Source of the DNA: Tuwongella immobilis
GTDB lineage: Bacteria > Planctomycetota > Planctomycetia > Gemmatales > Gemmataceae
Reading direction: 5' to 3'
DNA length: 64,000 nucleotides
NCBI RefSeq assembly: GCF_901538355.1
Contig: NZ_LR593887.1
Span: 1,898,920-1,962,919, forward strand
Shown in pieces: positions 48,982-62,465 of the stretch (position 1 is its first letter; every line of letters starts with the position of its first letter). A program made the position numbers and the translations under genes. The notes under the pieces are model-generated. The model searched no databases and was not told where the DNA came from. It saw only the letters and a program-made list of their open reading frames with translations.

Positions 48982-49076
48982 GGAAGTGTTCCCGTAGCTG
49001 GTGCTCGGTGCGGTCTTCAAAACCGTCATCGGGTGGTATCCCCACCCGAGGTGGGTTCGATTCCCATCCGCTTCCG
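48982..49076 (+). tRNA. selC: tRNA-Sec (anticodon TCA)
   Basis: A 95-base gene. The acceptor GGAAGTG pairs with CGCTTCC, followed by discriminator G; the anticodon arm CGGT/ACCG holds the loop CTTCAAA with anticodon TCA; a long variable arm CGGGTGG/CCACCCG marks a class II tRNA; the T-arm is GTGGG-TTCGATT-CCCAT. This reads UGA as selenocysteine. CCA is not encoded. The 3' half is antisense to the integrase gene end. selA, selB and selD are not in the window. Confidence 0.93.
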
Positions 49077-50327
49077 TGAATTTGTTTGAGTGTCACAGTG
49101 AAAACCGCTCGTTGTGTGAAATTCGCCTTGTTTTTGCGAGGTTTCAGATTTGGGGGAACGCTCCAGATCGTCAGAGATCGCTTCTGAGTGCGCCGCTTTT
49201 TGCGCCGCTTTTGGTGGTGGGGTCCATTGCTGGGCTGCGTCAAAACTGGAGTCCGTCGTGTCGATGTAATGCCGCATGGCGACGGCCTGGGTGTTGCCGA
49301 TCCATTTGGTAACCACAGCGAGCGGAAAGTTTGCCGCCAGGTCACTTTCGCATGATGCTCGCAGCGCGTGCCAGATGCGTGGCCAGGGAGTCAGGCCAGC
49401 ACGACGCACTACTTTGGCAAGGGTGGTGCGGAGATTGGCACCGGCCCAGCCGTCCGCCCCGGCAGCCCGTTGACGGAAATCCTCGGGCATTACAAACTCC
49501 GTCCCTTCCGGAGTTGCATCCCAAGCAGCCTCCAGATGCGGGCGAAGCAGGGGGAAGATGGGAATCGTGCGAATCCCGGTCTTTGGGCTTTCGAGGACGA
49601 TTCGCCCACGCCCCCAATCGATGTCGCCCCATCGCAACGAGAACGGTTCACTTGGGACGCGCATGCCGGTGTATCGTGCAAATGCGACCAAGAGCCGCCA
49701 CCATAAGTTGGGGCAGTGCTCGATGACTTTGTGAATATCCTCATTGCTGACATAGGTACGACGTTCGGATGGGTTCCCACCTTTGCAGCTTGCGTGCTCC
49801 CAAGGGTGCGGGCGTTTGAACTGGCGGGCGGCTTCTCCCCACATCGTTTTCGCGTGCCCGAGGCGTTTGTGACGTGTGCTCGGTCGCAGGTCGGCCATCG
49901 CATCCAGGAAGGTTTCCGCGTCGGCATGGCAGATGGATTCTAATCGGCGATGACCAAACAGCCGAATGAGCAGATCGACTGTTTGTCGCCATGTGCGAAT
50001 CGAGGTCGGTTTGTGGCCCGCTCTCACTCGCCCTTCGATCCACTGCGTCAGCCATTGTTCGACGGTGAATCGTTCTTCGAGGACGATCAGATCTACCGCA
50101 GCAAGTTTCTCTTTGAGTTGTTCCCCGATGGCATCCAGCCAAACCGCTGTTTCTCGTGGCAGCGGCTGACCGCTTAATTGGGCCGCCAAGATCATCTCGA
50201 CATGCCGGCGGACTGACTCCGCATCCTTCTTCGAGATCTTCCCCAGTCGGATGGTCTTGCGTTTTCTGTCGCTGCTGAGGAACTGGATTCGCCGTGTGCC
50301 ATTCGGGTCATTGACAAGACTGGCCAT
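49026..50327 (-). CDS. int: Tyrosine-type phage integrase
   Basis: A 433-residue site-specific recombinase. The N-terminal SAM-like domain is near ERFTVEQWLTQWIEGRVRAGHKP. The catalytic domain has AFARYTGMRVPSEPFSLRWGDID (first Arg), PRIWHALRASCESDLA (His-x-x-Arg) and NTQAVAMRHYIDTT (Tyr nucleophile). The last ~17 codons are read from the antisense strand of the tRNA-Sec 3' half, so the attachment core lies within the integrase reading frame. This is the usual arrangement for integrases that target tRNA genes. Confidence 0.93.
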   Translation of the reverse strand: MASLVNDPNGTRRIQFLSSDRKRKTIRLGKISKKDAESVRRHVEMILAAQLSGQPLPRETAVWLDAIGEQLKEKLAAVDLIVLEERFTVEQWLTQWIEGRVRAGHKPTSIRTWRQTVDLLIRLFGHRRLESICHADAETFLDAMADLRPSTRHKRLGHAKTMWGEAARQFKRPHPWEHASCKGGNPSERRTYVSNEDIHKVIEHCPNLWWRLLVAFARYTGMRVPSEPFSLRWGDIDWGRGRIVLESPKTGIRTIPIFPLLRPHLEAAWDATPEGTEFVMPEDFRQRAAGADGWAGANLRTTLAKVVRRAGLTPWPRIWHALRASCESDLAANFPLAVVTKWIGNTQAVAMRHYIDTTDSSFDAAQQWTPPPKAAQKAAHSEAISDDLERSPKSETSQKQGEFHTTSGFHCDTQTNSRKRMGIEPTSGGDTTR

Positions 50328-57069: not shown

Positions 57070-57713
57070 AGATCCTGAAGCTCACCCAGGGCAGTCCTGA
57101 TTGGCTGGCCTGGCGGCAGCTCGGGATCGGAGGCAGTGACGCCCCCATCATCATGGGGGTGTCACCATACTCGACCCGCGAAAAGCTGCTTGGTCAGAAA
57201 CTGGGATTGGTCCCCAAAGACGAAGCCTATGCCATGCGCCGTGGCAGCCGGCTCGAACCGTCCGCTCGTGGCATGTACCAGATCCGCGAAGGGTACAGTA
57301 GCGCCGAGCCCGTCTGCGTCATCCACCCGGATTTCGATTGGTGCCGCGCATCGCTCGATGGGCTTGTGCTCGGCGCGATGGATCAGCCGTCGCATGTGTT
57401 GGAGATCAAGTGTTGGTCGTGGCAGAAGCATGACTATGTGCTGAATGGCATCGTGCCCGATGAGGTCTACCCGCAGATCCAGCATCAATTGTTCTGCTGC
57501 GAATTGGATCGTTGCGACTTGGTCAGCTACAACCCGAGCGAGAAATTTCTCGCCACGGGCGAAGAGTATGCGTGCCTGACGGTCAAGGCAGACGCTACCT
57601 ACCAAGCAAGCATGTTCGCCGAGGAGTGCAAATTCTGGGAGGAACTGAACGAACGGCTCCGAGCTCGCACCGTCCGATCCGGGTGGCAGGCACCCATCAC
57701 GGAGGACCTATGA
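57066..57713 (+). CDS. YqaJ-type phage exonuclease
   Basis: A 215-residue PD-(D/E)XK nuclease. It shows QGSPDWLAWRQLGIGGSDAPIIMG, RRGSRLEPSARGMYQ (conserved Glu), DFDWCRASLDGLVLG (Asp) and HVLEIKCWSW (E-x-K). This is the lambda-exonuclease-like partner that resects DNA for recombination. It starts at GTG within the stop of the Sak4-like gene. Confidence 0.9.
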   Translation: MKILKLTQGSPDWLAWRQLGIGGSDAPIIMGVSPYSTREKLLGQKLGLVPKDEAYAMRRGSRLEPSARGMYQIREGYSSAEPVCVIHPDFDWCRASLDGLVLGAMDQPSHVLEIKCWSWQKHDYVLNGIVPDEVYPQIQHQLFCCELDRCDLVSYNPSEKFLATGEEYACLTVKADATYQASMFAEECKFWEELNERLRARTVRSGWQAPITEDL

Positions 57714-58747
57714 AGCTCCCCATCCTGGATTGGCTGCGGATGCCGTCGCTGCGGCTCTGCTCCCCGGCGGCGGTCGCTCTCTGGGCCCAGATGATCCCGG
57801 CGATGGTGGAGTCACCGACGCCGGGCCATCTCGTGGATGCCACCGGTGATCCGCTCGACGACGCCAGCATCGCCAAGCTAACAGGGGTTAGCGCAGATGG
57901 TGTATCTGTGCTAGTCAGCGAGTTGGTCAAGGCTGGGATTCTGGCGGTTGAAGGAAAGACGATCGTCTCTCCGATGGTCCGGCGGGAGATGGGGTTCCGA
58001 CGAGTTTGTTCACTATCAGGAAAGGCCGGTGCCCCCCATCGTTGGCCTGTCCGAAATACCAACGCTCAAACGGGCCACTGCCAACCTGTTAAGGTACCTG
58101 TTGAGGTACCTGATCACGTACCTGTTAAGGTACCTGTTGAGGTACCTGATCACGTACCTGTTAAGGTACCTGTTGAGGTAGGGCTTTTTGGCCCCCCCCA
58201 TACCCCCCCAGAGACTAAGACAGAAGAAAAGACAGAAGACAAAAAGACATTCCGTGCTGCGCACGGGCGGGGCGGTGCCCCGCACGTAGCCCGACAATCT
58301 GACGCTGACCAATGCGACAAGCAGAAGGCGAATCATCCCAAAGCTGTACAGTATTGGTGCGACTCTTGGCAGAAACTTCGAGGCGTGAAGTATCCGTTCA
58401 ATGGCGGCAAGGATGCCAAGACGATCTCGTGGATGCTGGCTCAGGTCGAAGGCGATTTGGCCCGCTTCCAGGCGATCATCGATGGGTATCTGGCGAGCGT
58501 CGAAACCTACGTCATCAACCAGGGCCATTCCCTTGGTGTGCTGCGGTCGCAGTTCTCGACATGGTACGCACGCGCTGAAGCACCCCAACAATCGCCAGAA
58601 ACGCCCCGTCTGTTCGTTCCGACGGCATCAGATGACCCAAACCTCACCTACGAAGAAAAGATCCGAATATTGGTCGAGGAGGAGGACCGGCTCAGCCCCG
58701 AGGAGCAACGGGAAAGGTTGTTGCGGCAAATGGGGGGCAGCGAATGA
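57710..58747 (+). CDS. Phage replication initiator-like protein with internal iterons
   Basis: A 345-residue protein. The N-terminus (about 10-95) is a winged-helix-like region (SIAKLTGVSADGVSVLVSELVKAGILAVE). The centre encodes the peptide repeat VPVKVPVEVPDH nearly three times; the underlying DNA is a 96-base iteron array. A charged Lys/Glu stretch follows. The C-terminal ~120 residues (YWCDSWQKLRGVKYPFNGGKDAKTISWMLAQVEGDLARFQAIIDGYL) are helical and resemble replication-protein ends. The layout matches lambda O. The start ATG follows GGAGG. Confidence 0.7.
   Translation: MKLPILDWLRMPSLRLCSPAAVALWAQMIPAMVESPTPGHLVDATGDPLDDASIAKLTGVSADGVSVLVSELVKAGILAVEGKTIVSPMVRREMGFRRVCSLSGKAGAPHRWPVRNTNAQTGHCQPVKVPVEVPDHVPVKVPVEVPDHVPVKVPVEVGLFGPPHTPPETKTEEKTEDKKTFRAAHGRGGAPHVARQSDADQCDKQKANHPKAVQYWCDSWQKLRGVKYPFNGGKDAKTISWMLAQVEGDLARFQAIIDGYLASVETYVINQGHSLGVLRSQFSTWYARAEAPQQSPETPRLFVPTASDDPNLTYEEKIRILVEEEDRLSPEEQRERLLRQMGGSE
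58085..58180 (+). repeat. Iteron array (candidate phage replication origin)
   Basis: Eight 12-base units in tandem: CCTGTTAAGGTA, CCTGTTGAGGTA and CCTGATCACGTA repeat in this order, giving two perfect 36-base units (58085-58120, 58121-58156) and two thirds of a third (58157-58180). A polypyrimidine/polypurine stretch follows with an A-rich run near 58214-58250. This lies inside the initiator gene, as in lambda. Origin function is inferred. Confidence 0.85.
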
Positions 58748-59409
58748 GCGATACCCCGAAATGGTACACCGATCTGCTTGTCGTCTATGGCCCCATTCTG
58801 GGTGCCGACCAAAAGGGCGTGATGACTGTTCTATTACAGTGGTTCAGGCTGTTCTTGCAGTGTGGATACAGACGAGAGGAGATCGAGGACGGATTTGCCA
58901 CACTCGCCAAGGATCCGAATCGCCCGACGTACCGCCAAGAGATGCTGGTTTACATTCAAAGGGCGATTCATCAGTCGCGTGCGGCGGCCAAACAAAGCGA
59001 GCGAGTCGAGGAGGAGACTGCGCCACCCTGCGACATTTGCGGCGGCAGTGGCATCGTCGTGGTACCTCGACTGGAAGACGTTGAGTTCGGGGCATGGAAA
59101 TTCGTCCAATCGATTCCTGGCAGCAAGCCTCGGCGCTGGACTTCCACGGTGGCATGCAGTTGTCCCAAGGGGGCTCGAACTGCCGAGTTCACCCGCTCGA
59201 AGGACGCCCAGGGTAAGCATCGAGTCACGCGGCCGATGCGGACGCTGGTCAACTACGAATCGCGGAACCCACACTGGCGGGAGCAATTAGCGGAAGAGGA
59301 AGAACGTCAGAAGCTCCAGCGCAAGGTGGAGGGCGACACTGCGGATTTGGATCACAAATCTGGCCGCGTCAAAGGCTTAGGGGCGATCCCGAAGGAGTGG
59401 CTGGAATGA
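58744..59409 (+). CDS. Hypothetical phage protein with zinc finger (possible helicase loader)
   Basis: A 221-residue protein overlapping the initiator by four bases. The N-terminus is helical (VMTVLLQWFRLFLQCGYRREEIEDGFATLAK). A zinc-finger-like centre has CDICGGSG and CSCPKG. The C-terminus is charged. Its place right after the initiator fits a helicase loader or primosome partner, but no such motif is visible. Confidence 0.6.
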   Translation: MSDTPKWYTDLLVVYGPILGADQKGVMTVLLQWFRLFLQCGYRREEIEDGFATLAKDPNRPTYRQEMLVYIQRAIHQSRAAAKQSERVEEETAPPCDICGGSGIVVVPRLEDVEFGAWKFVQSIPGSKPRRWTSTVACSCPKGARTAEFTRSKDAQGKHRVTRPMRTLVNYESRNPHWREQLAEEEERQKLQRKVEGDTADLDHKSGRVKGLGAIPKEWLE

Positions 59410-59777
59410 TCGAGCTCGAATTGCCATGGCCACCAAGTGTGAACAGCTACTGGCGCACCTTCCAGGGGCGAATGATCATCAGCCGGGAAGGGCGAGAGTA
59501 TCGCAAAGCGGTGCAAGTATTGCTGTTACAGCTTGGGCCATCCATTCGCCAGCACGCCACCGAGCGGCTGGCAGTGTTGCTCCAGGTGTTTCCTCCGGAT
59601 CGGCGGCGGAGAGACTTGGACAATCTGGGCAAGGCTCTGCTCGACGCCCTCGCTGCGGCGGGGGTTTACGAGGATGACAGTCAGATCGATGATTTTCACG
59701 TGATTCGACGGCGGGTCGTGAGCGGCGGCAAGGTCTTGGTGGCGATCAATGTCATGGAGGAATCATGCTCATCCTGA
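59406..59777 (+). CDS. RusA-like Holliday junction resolvase
   Basis: A 123-residue endonuclease. It opens MIELELPWPPSVNSYWRT and has the catalytic region RRRRDLDNLGKALLDALAAAGVYEDDSQIDDFHVIR, with the conserved Asp residues. It resolves recombination or replication intermediates. It overlaps the previous gene by four bases and the CsrA-like gene by 13. Confidence 0.9.
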   Translation: MIELELPWPPSVNSYWRTFQGRMIISREGREYRKAVQVLLLQLGPSIRQHATERLAVLLQVFPPDRRRRDLDNLGKALLDALAAAGVYEDDSQIDDFHVIRRRVVSGGKVLVAINVMEESCSS

Positions 59778-59980
59778 AGCGATACATCGGGCAGCGGATC
59801 TTTCTGCAACTGCCGAACGGCCAGGAAGTTACCGTTGTTGTCACCGAGATTGATCGACGCAGCAACTCGGTCAAGGTTGGCATCGAGGCCCCCCGATCGA
59901 TCAGCATTGTCCGGGCTGAGATTGCTGTCAGGGTGGAGCCGGCGGCCAAGGTGGAGTGGGATGATCCGGTGTCGAATTGA
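59765..59980 (+). CDS. Phage-encoded CsrA-like RNA-binding protein
   Basis: A 71-residue protein. It reads MLILKRYIGQRIFLQLPNG, then VTEIDRRSNSVKVGIEAPRSISIVRAEI, a full CsrA fold (strands 1-5 and the VRAEI end). CsrA dimers bind GGA motifs in mRNA leaders and block or stabilise them. Its gene is followed by a non-coding stretch with tRNA-like RNAs and a terminator. Bacterial CsrA is 60-65 residues; this has a short tail. Confidence 0.85.
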   Translation: MLILKRYIGQRIFLQLPNGQEVTVVVTEIDRRSNSVKVGIEAPRSISIVRAEIAVRVEPAAKVEWDDPVSN

Positions 59981-60013: not shown

Positions 60014-60117
60014 CCACACGGGGCGGGCACGTTGACCCGCGAGACTAGGCGGCAGGCCGAAAGGCGACACCTGAGGGCCGCTGTTCTTTCGACCCGGTTC
60101 AACTCCGGGCGTGTGGC
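60014..60117 (+). ncRNA. tRNA-like cloverleaf RNA without anticodon arm
   Basis: CCACACG (60014-60020) pairs perfectly with CGTGTGG (60110-60116). A T-arm CCCGG-TTCAACT-CCGGG (60093-60109) has the consensus TTCRANY loop. A five-pair D-arm-like hairpin (GCGGG/CCCGC) lies at 60023-60040. In place of the anticodon arm is a long stem (60041-60088) capped by GCC-GAAA-GGC. No anticodon loop is seen and the D-loop lacks GG. It sits two bases before the next tRNA-like gene. Expression not shown. Confidence 0.6.
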
Positions 60118-60119
60118 AT

Positions 60120-60200
60120 GCCCCTGTGGCGAAAAGCAAACGCGACCATCCCAAAAATGGTTGTCCATAGGACATGTCGGTTCGAGACCGGCCAGGGGCA
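60120..60200 (+). tRNA. Atypical tRNA-Leu (anticodon CAA)
   Basis: An 81-base class II tRNA: acceptor GCCCCTG/CAGGGGC with A discriminator, D-stem GCG/CGC, anticodon stem ACCAT/ATGGT with loop CCCAAAA, variable arm TGTCC/GGACA, T-arm GTCGG/CCGGC. The anticodon CAA and the long variable arm point to leucine. Two features are odd: position 33 is C rather than U, and the D-loop (AAAAGCAAA) lacks the GG that docks with the T-loop. It may not be translation-competent. CCA is not encoded. Confidence 0.75.
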
Positions 60201-60211
60201 AAAAAATCGAT

Positions 60212-60264
60212 CTCCCCAGGAGACCACTTTCATTTCTGGAGTGGACATTCCTGGGGAGGTTTTT
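60212..60264 (+). terminator. Terminator after the tRNA-like genes
   Basis: CTCCCCAGGA pairs with TCCTGGGGAG and, inside, CCACT pairs with AGTGG; a run of five T follows. It separates the early operon and tRNA-like RNAs from the packaging genes. Its loop carries GGA motifs that a CsrA protein could bind. Confidence 0.85.
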
Positions 60265-60373: not shown

Positions 60374-60946
60374 ATGTTGACCCCGAAGCAGGAACGTTTT
60401 TGTCAGGAATACATTGTCGATCTGAATGCTTCGGCGGCGGCTCGGCGGGCTGGGTATTCCCACCGCACTGCTGGCAGCATTGGCGAGGAACTCCTGAGAA
60501 AACCTGAAATTTCGGCGCGCATTCGAGAGTTGAAGGATGAGCAGGCCCGCCGCACGCAGATCACTGCGGATCAGGTCTTGGCGGAACTGGCGAGGATTGC
60601 CTACCTCGATCCACGCAAGCTGTTCCATCCGGACGGTTCACTCCGATCGATCCAAGAATTGGATGAGGATACGGCCCGAGCGATTGCGGCGATCGATATC
60701 GAGGAACGCTTGTCTGGACGTGATCTGGTGACTCGCACGATAAAGAGGATCAAACTCTGGAATAAGGTCGAGGCGTTGGACCGGCTGGCACGCCATTTCG
60801 GATTGTTCACGGATCGGTTGGAGTTGGGCGGCAAGCTGGCGGTGACGACGATGGTGCCTTTGGAGGAGATGACGGATGAGCAGCTTGCCGAGATCGCCTC
60901 ACGAGGCAGCGGCGGAACTGCTCCGTCGTCGTCAGGCGCGTCGTGA
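60374..60946 (+). CDS. terS: Terminase small subunit
   Basis: A 190-residue DNA-recognition subunit of the packaging motor. It opens LTPKQERFCQEYIVDLNASAAARRAGYS, the standard TerS DNA-binding domain, followed by ELLRKPEISARIREL. The middle has the central coiled region and the end is Ser/Gly-rich. ATG 60374 gives the family N-terminus. It overlaps terL by 71 bases in another frame. Confidence 0.92.
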   Translation: MLTPKQERFCQEYIVDLNASAAARRAGYSHRTAGSIGEELLRKPEISARIRELKDEQARRTQITADQVLAELARIAYLDPRKLFHPDGSLRSIQELDEDTARAIAAIDIEERLSGRDLVTRTIKRIKLWNKVEALDRLARHFGLFTDRLELGGKLAVTTMVPLEEMTDEQLAEIASRGSGGTAPSSSGAS

Positions 60947-62465
60947 CCTTCTGGAGTTCGTTCGATACACCAAAGGCGACTATGAGCCGAACTGGCACCA
61001 TGAACGCATTGCGGCGAAGCTGGATGATTTGGCGTCTGGTCGGATCACTCGGCTGATGGTGTTTGCTCCACCCCGCCATGGCAAGAGCGAATTGGTGTCC
61101 CGGCGGTTCCCCGCGTATCTGCTCGGTGCCCACCCGAACACATCGATCATCGCGTGTGCCAGTACCGCGGATCTAGCGAGTGACATGAACCGGGATGTGC
61201 AGCAGTGCATCATGTCGCCCGAGTTTCAGCGACTCTTCCCGGCCACGCAATTGCGACCGGGACGGGCCAACTCCAGCACTTTCGAAACGGTCGCGGGCGG
61301 TCGATATATCTGCGCTGGTGTGGGTGGTCCGATCACGGGTCGCGGCGGCGACATGCTGATCATCGACGACATTTTCAAAAACGCCGAAGAGGCCAATTCA
61401 CCCACCATTCGTTCCAAGATTCGGCGCTGGTATGAAACGACGTTTCGCACTCGAGCGATGCCGGGTGCACGCATCCTGATCACGCTCACGCGCTGGCACC
61501 CCGACGATCTGGCGGGCCAATTGCAGACGCTGATGGGCAGCGATCGTAACGCGGACCAATGGGAGGTCCTCTGTCTCCCCGCGCTAGCCGGTGAGGGCAC
61601 GCCGACCGAGACCGATCCTCGGCGACCGGGTGAGGCACTGTGGCCTGCTCGGTTCCCGGTTCGATCGCTCATGGCCGCGAAGGCGGGTTGCATCCCAGCG
61701 GACTGGCTGGCGCTGTATCAGCAAGCGCCGATTCGAGAGGGTGGCAACCACTTTCGCCGCGATTGGTTCCGTCGATGCCGCGTGGGCCAATTCGACACGG
61801 CTGGCGATTCGTTCGTGCTGATTCAGCCGGACGGAACGACTCGCCGCGTGATGCGAGATGCTTGTCAGGTGATTGTCACGGCAGACCCAGCCACCAGCGA
61901 AAAGGAGACGAATGATCCGACGGCAATCGGGGTGTACGCAATGACTCCGTCGGGGGATTTGTTGGTATTGAGCGTGATTGCCGAGCATTTGGATCTGGGT
62001 GCAATCCCGGATCGACTGGTAGCAACTGCGAACGCATGGGGAGCCACCTACATCGCTTTGGAATCGGATGGATTCCAAGTAAGTGTCGCGCGTGCGACCC
62101 GAGAAGTGGCCGGCTGTCCGGCCGTGCGGGAGTTGTCGCACGAAGGCAAGGGCAAGCTGTCGCGTGCAATCCCGGCGATCATTCGGGCCCAATCTGGCCA
62201 GATCTATGTGCTTCAGGGTGCCGATGGTCAGGAGCTGCCGTGGGTGGGATCATTCTTGGATGAGTGCGAACAATTCACAGGCTTGTCGGGCAATCGTGAT
62301 GATCGCGTGGATACGCTGGCCTATGCAGTTTTGGAGATGCCAACGCTGGCCGCGAATGGGCCAACGCTGGTGGCGGCATCGCGGCGGGCCCGACATGGCG
62401 CCAGCACATCCGACGAGGATGATGAGGACGTGAGCGACTTGCCAACATCTCGACACCGCTGGTGA
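60876..62465 (+). CDS. terL: Terminase large subunit
   Basis: A 529-residue ATPase-nuclease of the packaging motor. The ATPase has Walker A LMVFAPPRHGKS near residue 65 and Walker B DMLIIDDIFKNAEEA. The C-terminal RNase H-like nuclease begins near VTADPATSEKETNDPTAIGVY with later Asp residues (ALESDGFQ; DDRVDTLAYA). The acidic C-terminal tail (TSDEDDEDVSDL) is common in TerL. It starts inside terS. Confidence 0.93.
   Translation: MSSLPRSPHEAAAELLRRRQARRDLLEFVRYTKGDYEPNWHHERIAAKLDDLASGRITRLMVFAPPRHGKSELVSRRFPAYLLGAHPNTSIIACASTADLASDMNRDVQQCIMSPEFQRLFPATQLRPGRANSSTFETVAGGRYICAGVGGPITGRGGDMLIIDDIFKNAEEANSPTIRSKIRRWYETTFRTRAMPGARILITLTRWHPDDLAGQLQTLMGSDRNADQWEVLCLPALAGEGTPTETDPRRPGEALWPARFPVRSLMAAKAGCIPADWLALYQQAPIREGGNHFRRDWFRRCRVGQFDTAGDSFVLIQPDGTTRRVMRDACQVIVTADPATSEKETNDPTAIGVYAMTPSGDLLVLSVIAEHLDLGAIPDRLVATANAWGATYIALESDGFQVSVARATREVAGCPAVRELSHEGKGKLSRAIPAIIRAQSGQIYVLQGADGQELPWVGSFLDECEQFTGLSGNRDDRVDTLAYAVLEMPTLAANGPTLVAASRRARHGASTSDEDDEDVSDLPTSRHRW

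What the first reader, a model, noticed from the sequence alone, without database searches (positions are those of the whole stretch)
60014..60264. Phage RNA locus: anticodon-less tRNA-like cloverleaf, atypical tRNA-Leu and terminator behind csrA
Two adjacent RNAs have perfect 7-bp acceptor stems and good T-arms. The first (60014-60117) replaces the anticodon arm with a long GAAA-capped stem; the second (60120-60200) has anticodon CAA but C33 and a D-loop without GG. Both look like tRNA mimics rather than working tRNAs. T4 also encodes stable tRNA-cluster RNAs of unknown function. A role as decoy for tRNA-processing, modifying or anticodon-cleaving enzymes is a testable inference.
Basis: partly seen in the sequence, partly recalled or inferred. 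Interest (0 to 1): 0.8.

Follow-up and report, generated by a model that had tools for sequence, protein, structure and literature searches.

The report
Prophage tRNA-Leu plus anticodon-less tRNA-like RNA
A virus dormant in a bacterium's chromosome carries, side by side, a real but altered leucine transfer RNA gene and a second tRNA-shaped RNA that has lost the part that reads the genetic code; the pair probably helps the virus withstand attacks on tRNAs, but this has not been tested.

Summary
Two abutting tRNA-type genes lie in a prophage between csrA and the terminase genes. Only these two places in 64 kb join a 7-bp Watson-Crick acceptor to a 5-bp T-stem with a TTCRA loop; about 0.02 are expected by chance. 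RNA2 (60120-60200) is not a mimic. It scores 71.6 bits against a tRNA-Leu covariance model, like independent phage tRNA-Leu genes. Its GG-less D-loop recurs in a tRNA-Leu(CAG) of a 218-kb phage; only C33 is odd. An identical copy (81/81) sits in a second, otherwise unrelated prophage. RNA1 (60014-60117) is the strange one: intact acceptor, D-like and T-arms, but a 50-nt irregular stem replaces the anticodon arm. RNA1 is not a lone accident: the second prophage has a tRNA-like element with RNA1's acceptor near its RNA2 copy, and a host CRISPR spacer matches an RNA1-like T-arm and acceptor. In a sister prophage the slot holds a queuine-transglycosylase-like moron gene, leaving only RNA2's 3' end. 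Y RNA, tmRNA, codon supplementation and tRNA-dependent lysogeny are disfavoured or excluded. Counter-defence (refractory tRNA plus decoy) is the best guess for function, not shown; neutral decay of RNA1 remains possible.

The parts
60014..60117 (+). RNA1: tRNA-like cloverleaf without an anticodon arm (acceptor 60014-60020/60110-60116, D-like 60023-60040, long irregular arm 60041-60090, T-arm 60093-60109, discriminator C60117; CCA not encoded)
   Evidence: fold -49.9 kcal/mol with acceptor, D-like and T pairs at P 0.93-1.0; chance expectation; CRISPR spacer relative
60120..60200 (+). RNA2: phage-type tRNA-Leu(CAA), C33 at 60151, anticodon 60152-60154, GG-less D-loop 60132-60140, A73 at 60200
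   Evidence: ARAGORN; 71.6 bits against tRNA-Leu covariance model; 81/81 identical copy in a second prophage
60209..60261 (+). Strong hairpin followed by TTTTT (60260-60264), intrinsic-terminator-like, also T-tailed on the minus strand
   Evidence: fold z -5.2; kept in the sister prophage with one A-U to G-C double change but without the T tract; minus-strand site
59765..59980 (+). csrA-like gene (71 aa), last protein gene upstream of the RNA pair
   Evidence: Pfam CsrA E 7e-13; 94% identical in the sister prophage
59397..59777 (+). RusA Holliday-junction resolvase gene
   Evidence: Pfam RusA, phrog_34
60374..60946 (+). terminase small subunit gene
   Evidence: Pfam Terminase_2 E 2e-40
60876..62465 (+). 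terminase large subunit gene
   Evidence: phrog_38 E 1e-100
49054..49140 (+). left attachment site: 3' end of host tRNA-Sec (48982-49076) plus 64 nt, repeated about 42.7 kb downstream at genome position about 1990649
   Evidence: 87-bp repeat, 97.7% identity; ARAGORN tRNA-SeC

Best explanation
RNA1 and RNA2 are a two-gene tRNA-type cargo cassette (a moron) of a temperate phage. SHOWN by sequence: RNA2 is a tRNA-Leu(CAA) of a phage lineage with an altered anticodon loop (C33) and a shortened D-loop; RNA1 keeps the acceptor, D-like and T-arms but has an irregular 50-nt arm in place of the anticodon arm, so it should not be able to decode; the cassette is optional and is exchanged between phages. 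INFERRED: both are cut from one transcript by the host's tRNA-processing enzymes and given CCA. INFERRED, most likely function: counter-defence against host systems that cleave or disable tRNAs, with RNA2 as a replacement tRNA whose altered anticodon loop resists cleavage and RNA1 as a non-decoding decoy or sink for enzymes that grip the acceptor/T-arm half of tRNAs.
For: Structure beyond chance. RNA2 fits a tRNA-Leu model at 71.6 bits and is homologous to a tRNA-Leu(CAG) of a 218-kb phage over the D-arm, variable-arm 3' side and T-arm. RNA2 is identical over 81 nt in two prophages whose flanks share nothing. The second prophage also has an element with RNA1's acceptor (CCACACG/CGTGTG, expected 0.04 by chance). 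A host CRISPR spacer carries an RNA1-like T-arm and acceptor (one loop difference over 26 nt), and its tail matches the sequence just upstream of the second prophage's RNA2 copy (0 of about 3000 null windows), so RNA1-like and RNA2 sequences probably occur together in a second phage lineage. In the sister prophage the same slot holds a queuine tRNA-ribosyltransferase-like gene, filed by PHROGs under moron/host takeover. TTG is not over-used by the phage (0.249 of Leu codons; 0.255 in host ORFs) and the host has its own tRNA-Leu(CAA), so codon supplementation is not needed. [quoted passage not shown]
Against: No expression data. No PrrC/RloC-type AAA_13 protein in this host; other tRNA nucleases were not surveyed. 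The cassette is dispensable (the sister lacks it). RNA1's middle arm has no comparative support: no full-length homologue was found in 95 genomes of the family, 392 of the phylum, or the virus collections. No published example of an anticodon-less tRNA decoy in a phage was found in the papers searched.
Confidence: 0.4

Rival explanations
1. RNA1 is a decaying tRNA pseudogene (a tRNA whose anticodon region was replaced by an insertion or recombination), kept only as a passenger next to a useful tRNA-Leu (RNA2).
For: Phage tRNA arrays contain degenerate members, the cassette is lost in the sister prophage, RNA1 has no full-length homologue and its fold z-score is only -2.2. ARAGORN at relaxed settings finds a weak Ser(GCT) reading inside it, 15 kcal/mol worse than the best fold.
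Against: The acceptor and T-stem are free of mismatches. A spacer shows a relative that changed only in the T-loop within the T-arm/acceptor. An element with the same acceptor exists in a second prophage.
Confidence: 0.3
2. The RNAs act mainly in cis as tRNA punctuation: RNase P and 3' processing at RNA1 and RNA2 separate the csrA message from the terminase message, with the hairpin as stop or 3' end.
For: Position between csrA and the terminase genes, two nucleotides between RNA1 and RNA2, hairpin with T-tract directly downstream.
Against: The sister prophage keeps csrA, the hairpin and the terminase genes without the tRNAs; the second prophage has the same RNA2 at a different place, after capsid-region genes.
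Confidence: 0.12
3. RNA2 simply supplements UUG decoding for the phage, and RNA1 is irrelevant.
For: RNA2 is a complete tRNA-Leu(CAA) by model score.
Against: The phage's TTG share equals the host's and the host has its own tRNA-Leu(CAA); C33 should weaken decoding (general knowledge).
Confidence: 0.12
4. RNA1 is a bacterial Y RNA (YrlA) or a small tmRNA relative.
For: YrlA RNAs and tmRNA are known bacterial RNAs with tRNA-like domains and no normal anticodon arm.
Against: The YrlA model has a circularly permuted order (T-arm, closed acceptor, D-arm) and RNA1 does not match it; no Ro60/TROVE protein in the genome. RNA1 has A3-U70 instead of G3-U70, and ARAGORN finds no tmRNA in the window.
Confidence: 0.03

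Closest known systems
Phage-encoded tRNA genes, proposed or shown to counter tRNA-cleaving defences (PMC10264068, PMC11555353, PMC13096335)
   Same: RNA2 is a phage tRNA-Leu with an anticodon-loop change; it sits in a phage cargo slot; a homologue lies in a tRNA-rich phage.
   Different: RNA1 has no anticodon arm and cannot replace a cleaved tRNA; the host's tRNA nucleases are unknown here; no experiment.
Bacterial Y RNA YrlA (Rfam RF02553)
   Same: A non-coding RNA with tRNA-like T- and D-arms; one candidate lies in the tRNA array of the same 218-kb phage that holds RNA2's relative.
   Different: YrlA is circularly permuted and pairs with Ro60; RNA1 is not permuted, does not match the model, and this genome has no Ro60.
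tmRNA
   Same: Acceptor plus T-arm kept, anticodon arm replaced.
   Different: No G3-U70, no tmRNA call, much shorter.
Naturally occurring tRNAs with non-canonical structures (review PMC7609411)
   Same: tRNA-derived RNAs that depart from the canonical cloverleaf.
   Different: The passages of the review that I read describe changed acceptor/T-arm lengths or missing D- or T-arms, not replacement of the anticodon arm.
Phage T4 stable RNAs C and D
   Same: Stable non-tRNA RNAs beside phage tRNA genes.
   Different: No comparison with their sequences was made.

Membership tests
tRNA-Leu (RNA2) | Overall tRNA-Leu sequence and structure | tested here: met
   71.6 bits, E about 2e-16, against a model of host and phage tRNA-Leu; phage tRNA-Leu genes not in the model score 64-74 bits. 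One of the six model rows, L056 CAG, shares RNA2's D-arm.
tRNA-Leu (RNA2) | Long variable arm and A73 discriminator | tested here: met
   TGTCC ATA GGACA variable arm; A60200
tRNA-Leu (RNA2) | G18-G19 in the D-loop | tested here: not met
   D-loop AAAAGCAAA; the same loop is in L056 tRNA-Leu(CAG), so the lineage tolerates it
tRNA-Leu (RNA2) | U33 before the anticodon | tested here: not met
   C33; 81 of 87 ARAGORN-called tRNAs held here have T33; two others with C33 lie in the tRNA array of phage L056
tRNA-Leu (RNA2) | Charged with leucine and decodes UUG | not testable with these tools
   needs biochemistry
tRNA (RNA1) | 7-bp acceptor and 5-bp T-stem with TTCRANY loop | tested here: met
tRNA (RNA1) | Anticodon arm with 7-nt loop | tested here: not met
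   only a G-U-rich 5/7/5 candidate, 15 kcal/mol worse than the best fold
tRNA (RNA1) | Match to Rfam tRNA model | tested here: not met
   no RF00005 match up to E 10. The same search also missed RNA2, so this is weak evidence.
YrlA Y RNA (RNA1) | Permuted tRNA-like domain plus Ro60 partner | tested here: not met
   no YrlA match; topology differs; no TROVE protein
tmRNA (RNA1) | G3-U70 pair, tag reading frame | tested here: not met
   A3-U70 in the sequence; no tmRNA call
[quoted passage not shown]
   the attachment site is tRNA-Sec, left intact at attL; RNA2 is Leu
Anti-defence phage tRNA | Protects phage against a tRNA-targeting defence | not testable with these tools
   host PrrC/RloC-type protein absent; others not surveyed

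The most novel reading that the evidence does not exclude
Phages of this planctomycete-type host carry a mobile pair made of a refractory tRNA-Leu and a dedicated anticodon-less tRNA decoy, the decoy being a new kind of phage anti-defence RNA that occupies enzymes recognising the acceptor/T-arm half of tRNA.
Probability: 0.15. Interest if true: 0.8.

Novelty: new variant of a known kind. Interest (0 to 1): 0.5.

Why it matters
Why phages carry tRNA genes is a long-standing question, and the current answer (replacing tRNAs that defences destroy) predicts tRNAs that still decode. RNA1 keeps the half of a tRNA seen by processing enzymes, CCA addition and elongation factor but has no anticodon arm. 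If it is made as a stable RNA, it separates decoy from replacement, two functions that ordinary phage tRNAs confound. The second-prophage element and the CRISPR spacer indicate that such RNAs circulate among phages of one host.

Tried and rejected
Codon supplementation: TTG usage equals the host's. tRNA-dependent lysogeny: attachment site is tRNA-Sec and reconstituted. Y RNA: permuted topology, no Ro60. tmRNA: no G3-U70, no call. Ser(GCT) reading of RNA1: 15 kcal/mol worse than the best fold. GAAA-capped arm: 10.8 kcal/mol worse. The 15-mer D-arm search in IMG/VR and GTDB contigs gave mostly chance coding matches; real ones were only L024 (the second prophage itself) and L056. RNA1 acceptor/T-arm patterns in IMG/VR and in 392 genomes of the phylum gave no relative beyond element A in L024. 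Terminase-based search for related viral contigs found none; within 298 genomes of the class only distant terminases. A covariance model of a chromosomal extended-anticodon tRNA-like RNA found only its three founders clearly, plus ordinary tRNAs at low scores. No PrrC/RloC-type protein in the host. An alignment with one sequence on the wrong strand was redone; a script failed and was redone.

Full report
WHERE IT IS. The window lies in a 6.69-Mb single-contig genome whose closest searchable kin form one family; the size and kin suggest a Gemmataceae planctomycete, but no name was given. The right part of the window is a temperate prophage integrated at host tRNA-Sec: 87 bp spanning the end of that tRNA (49054-49140) recur about 42.7 kb downstream. 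The local gene order is Sak4-like annealing protein, YqaJ/RecE-type exonuclease, two unknown proteins, RusA, CsrA, RNA1, RNA2, hairpin, terminase small and large subunits.

THE OBSERVATION. RNA1 (60014-60117) and RNA2 (60120-60200) are two nucleotides apart. Scanning the window on both strands for a 7-bp Watson-Crick acceptor next to a 5-bp T-stem with a TTCRANN loop, with 60-130 nt in all, gives exactly these two places; Markov-1 simulated windows give 0.017 on average. Unconstrained folding gives cloverleaf-type structures for both. In RNA1 the acceptor, T-stem and D-like stem have pair probabilities of 0.93-1.0. No plausible 5-bp/7-nt anticodon arm exists except a G-U-rich Ser(GCT)-like one whose fold is 15 kcal/mol worse than the best.

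RNA2 IS A tRNA-Leu. Rfam's general tRNA model did not report it. A covariance model built from the five host tRNA-Leu genes and one phage tRNA-Leu scores it at 71.6 bits, against 73.6, 65.2 and 64.2 for phage tRNA-Leu genes that are not in the model. Its GG-less D-arm GCGAAAAGCAAACGC is identical in a tRNA-Leu(CAG) of a 218-kb phage with a large tRNA array, and both also share the end of the variable arm and most of the T-arm; a pattern from that second part finds only these two sources in 2.9 million viral contigs. The pattern used to find that phage was the D-arm itself; its location inside a called tRNA-Leu, and the similarity outside the pattern, are the independent evidence. C33 is unusual (81 of 87 called tRNAs held here have T33) but recurs in that phage's array.

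THE PAIR IS SHARED AND EXCHANGED. A second prophage in the same genome (4318-4337 kb) has RNA2 identical over 81 nt while the DNA around it is unrelated. About 250 nt further on it has element A (L276 15845-15934) with RNA1's acceptor (CCACACG...CGTGTG; 0.04 expected by chance) and a tRNA-type T-arm with 4 of 5 pairs, then a tRNA with anticodon CAU and a large insertion (46.9 bits to Rfam tRNA), and a third tRNA-like element. A CRISPR array of the host (at least 154 repeats) has a spacer reading ATGACCCGGTTCGACTCCGGGCGTGTGGAATGGGGAACGA: its first part is RNA1's T-arm and acceptor with one T-loop change, and its tail matches, with one gap, the sequence upstream of RNA2 in the second prophage (no match as good in about 3000 null windows). 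Other spacers match the second prophage. So an RNA1-like gene probably existed near RNA2 in a relative of that second phage. I infer that the two travel together.

THE SLOT. A sister of the window's prophage (6407-6440 kb, terminase 91% identical) matches it up to the csrA stop and again from the last 20 nt of RNA2. Between them, in place of the two RNAs, it has a 243-aa protein of phrog_887, queuine tRNA-ribosyltransferase, in PHROGs' moron/host-takeover class. The junction lies near the GTTCGA of the T-loop, which the end of that gene also contains. The downstream hairpin is kept with an A-U to G-C double change but without its T-tract. The cassette is therefore cargo and dispensable.

FUNCTION. 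Shown: structure, homology of RNA2, sharing, optional slot. Not shown: expression, processing, charging, function. The codon-supply explanation has no support (TTG 24.9% of phage Leu codons, 25.5% in host ORFs; the host has tRNA-Leu(CAA)). Lysogeny rescue is excluded by isotype. Y RNA and tmRNA fail defining tests. Published work proposes that phage tRNAs carry anticodon-loop changes that resist anticodon nucleases (PMC10264068) and shows that phage tRNAs rescue phages from tRNA-cleaving systems (PMC11555353). A tRNA-Leu with C33 and a companion without an anticodon arm fit that setting, RNA1 as decoy being the inferential step. The main rival is that RNA1 is a decaying tRNA; no full-length homologue allows a covariation test.

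A PARALLEL. A chromosomal tRNA-like RNA with an extended hairpin in place of the anticodon loop is conserved in this genome and two others of the family (87% and 80% identity), with three compensated pairs in that hairpin and a GNRA loop in two of three. It is not shown to be homologous to RNA1, and three sequences are few, but it shows that tRNA-type RNAs with a rebuilt anticodon arm persist in this group.

VERDICT. A real and unusual finding in RNA1, an ordinary one in RNA2. New variant of a known kind (phage tRNA-type cargo); function open.

Noticed in passing
L274 5644-5755 (genome 5825643-5825754), L283, L284: Chromosomal tRNA-like RNA of 106-112 nt with a 14-bp hairpin in place of the anticodon loop and a long variable arm, conserved in three genomes of the family with three compensatory pairs; 27.7 bits to Rfam tRNA, below its threshold.
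   Followed up: partly
L275 6809-7767 minus strand (genome 6682808-6683766): Chromosomal array of nine degenerate second-copy tRNAs (Glu, Asp, three Leu, Met, two Ser, Arg); two Leu lack the long variable arm and the Asp copy shares RNA2's 5' end GCCCCTGTGG.
   Followed up: partly
L276 15940-16078 (genome 4333939-4334077): tRNA-like gene with anticodon CAU and a large (about 60-nt) structured insertion in the variable region, in the prophage that holds the RNA2 copy; 46.9 bits to Rfam tRNA.
   Followed up: partly
L003 779-1510: Queuine tRNA-ribosyltransferase-like (phrog_887) gene occupying the RNA1/RNA2 slot of the sister prophage.
   Followed up: yes
L281 (genome 5943014-5955909): CRISPR array with at least 154 repeats; several spacers match the prophage at 4318-4337 kb of the same genome, and one matches an RNA1-like element.
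   Followed up: partly
L056 692-820 minus strand: YrlA-type Y RNA candidate (37.8 bits, below the 69-bit threshold) inside the tRNA array of a 218-kb phage.
   Followed up: no
window 48982-49140: Host tRNA-Sec used as prophage attachment site; its 3' end and 64 further bases are repeated about 42.7 kb downstream.
   Followed up: yes
window 58084-58180: In-frame repeats (VPVKVPVEVPDH) inside the unknown protein at 57695-58747.
   Followed up: no
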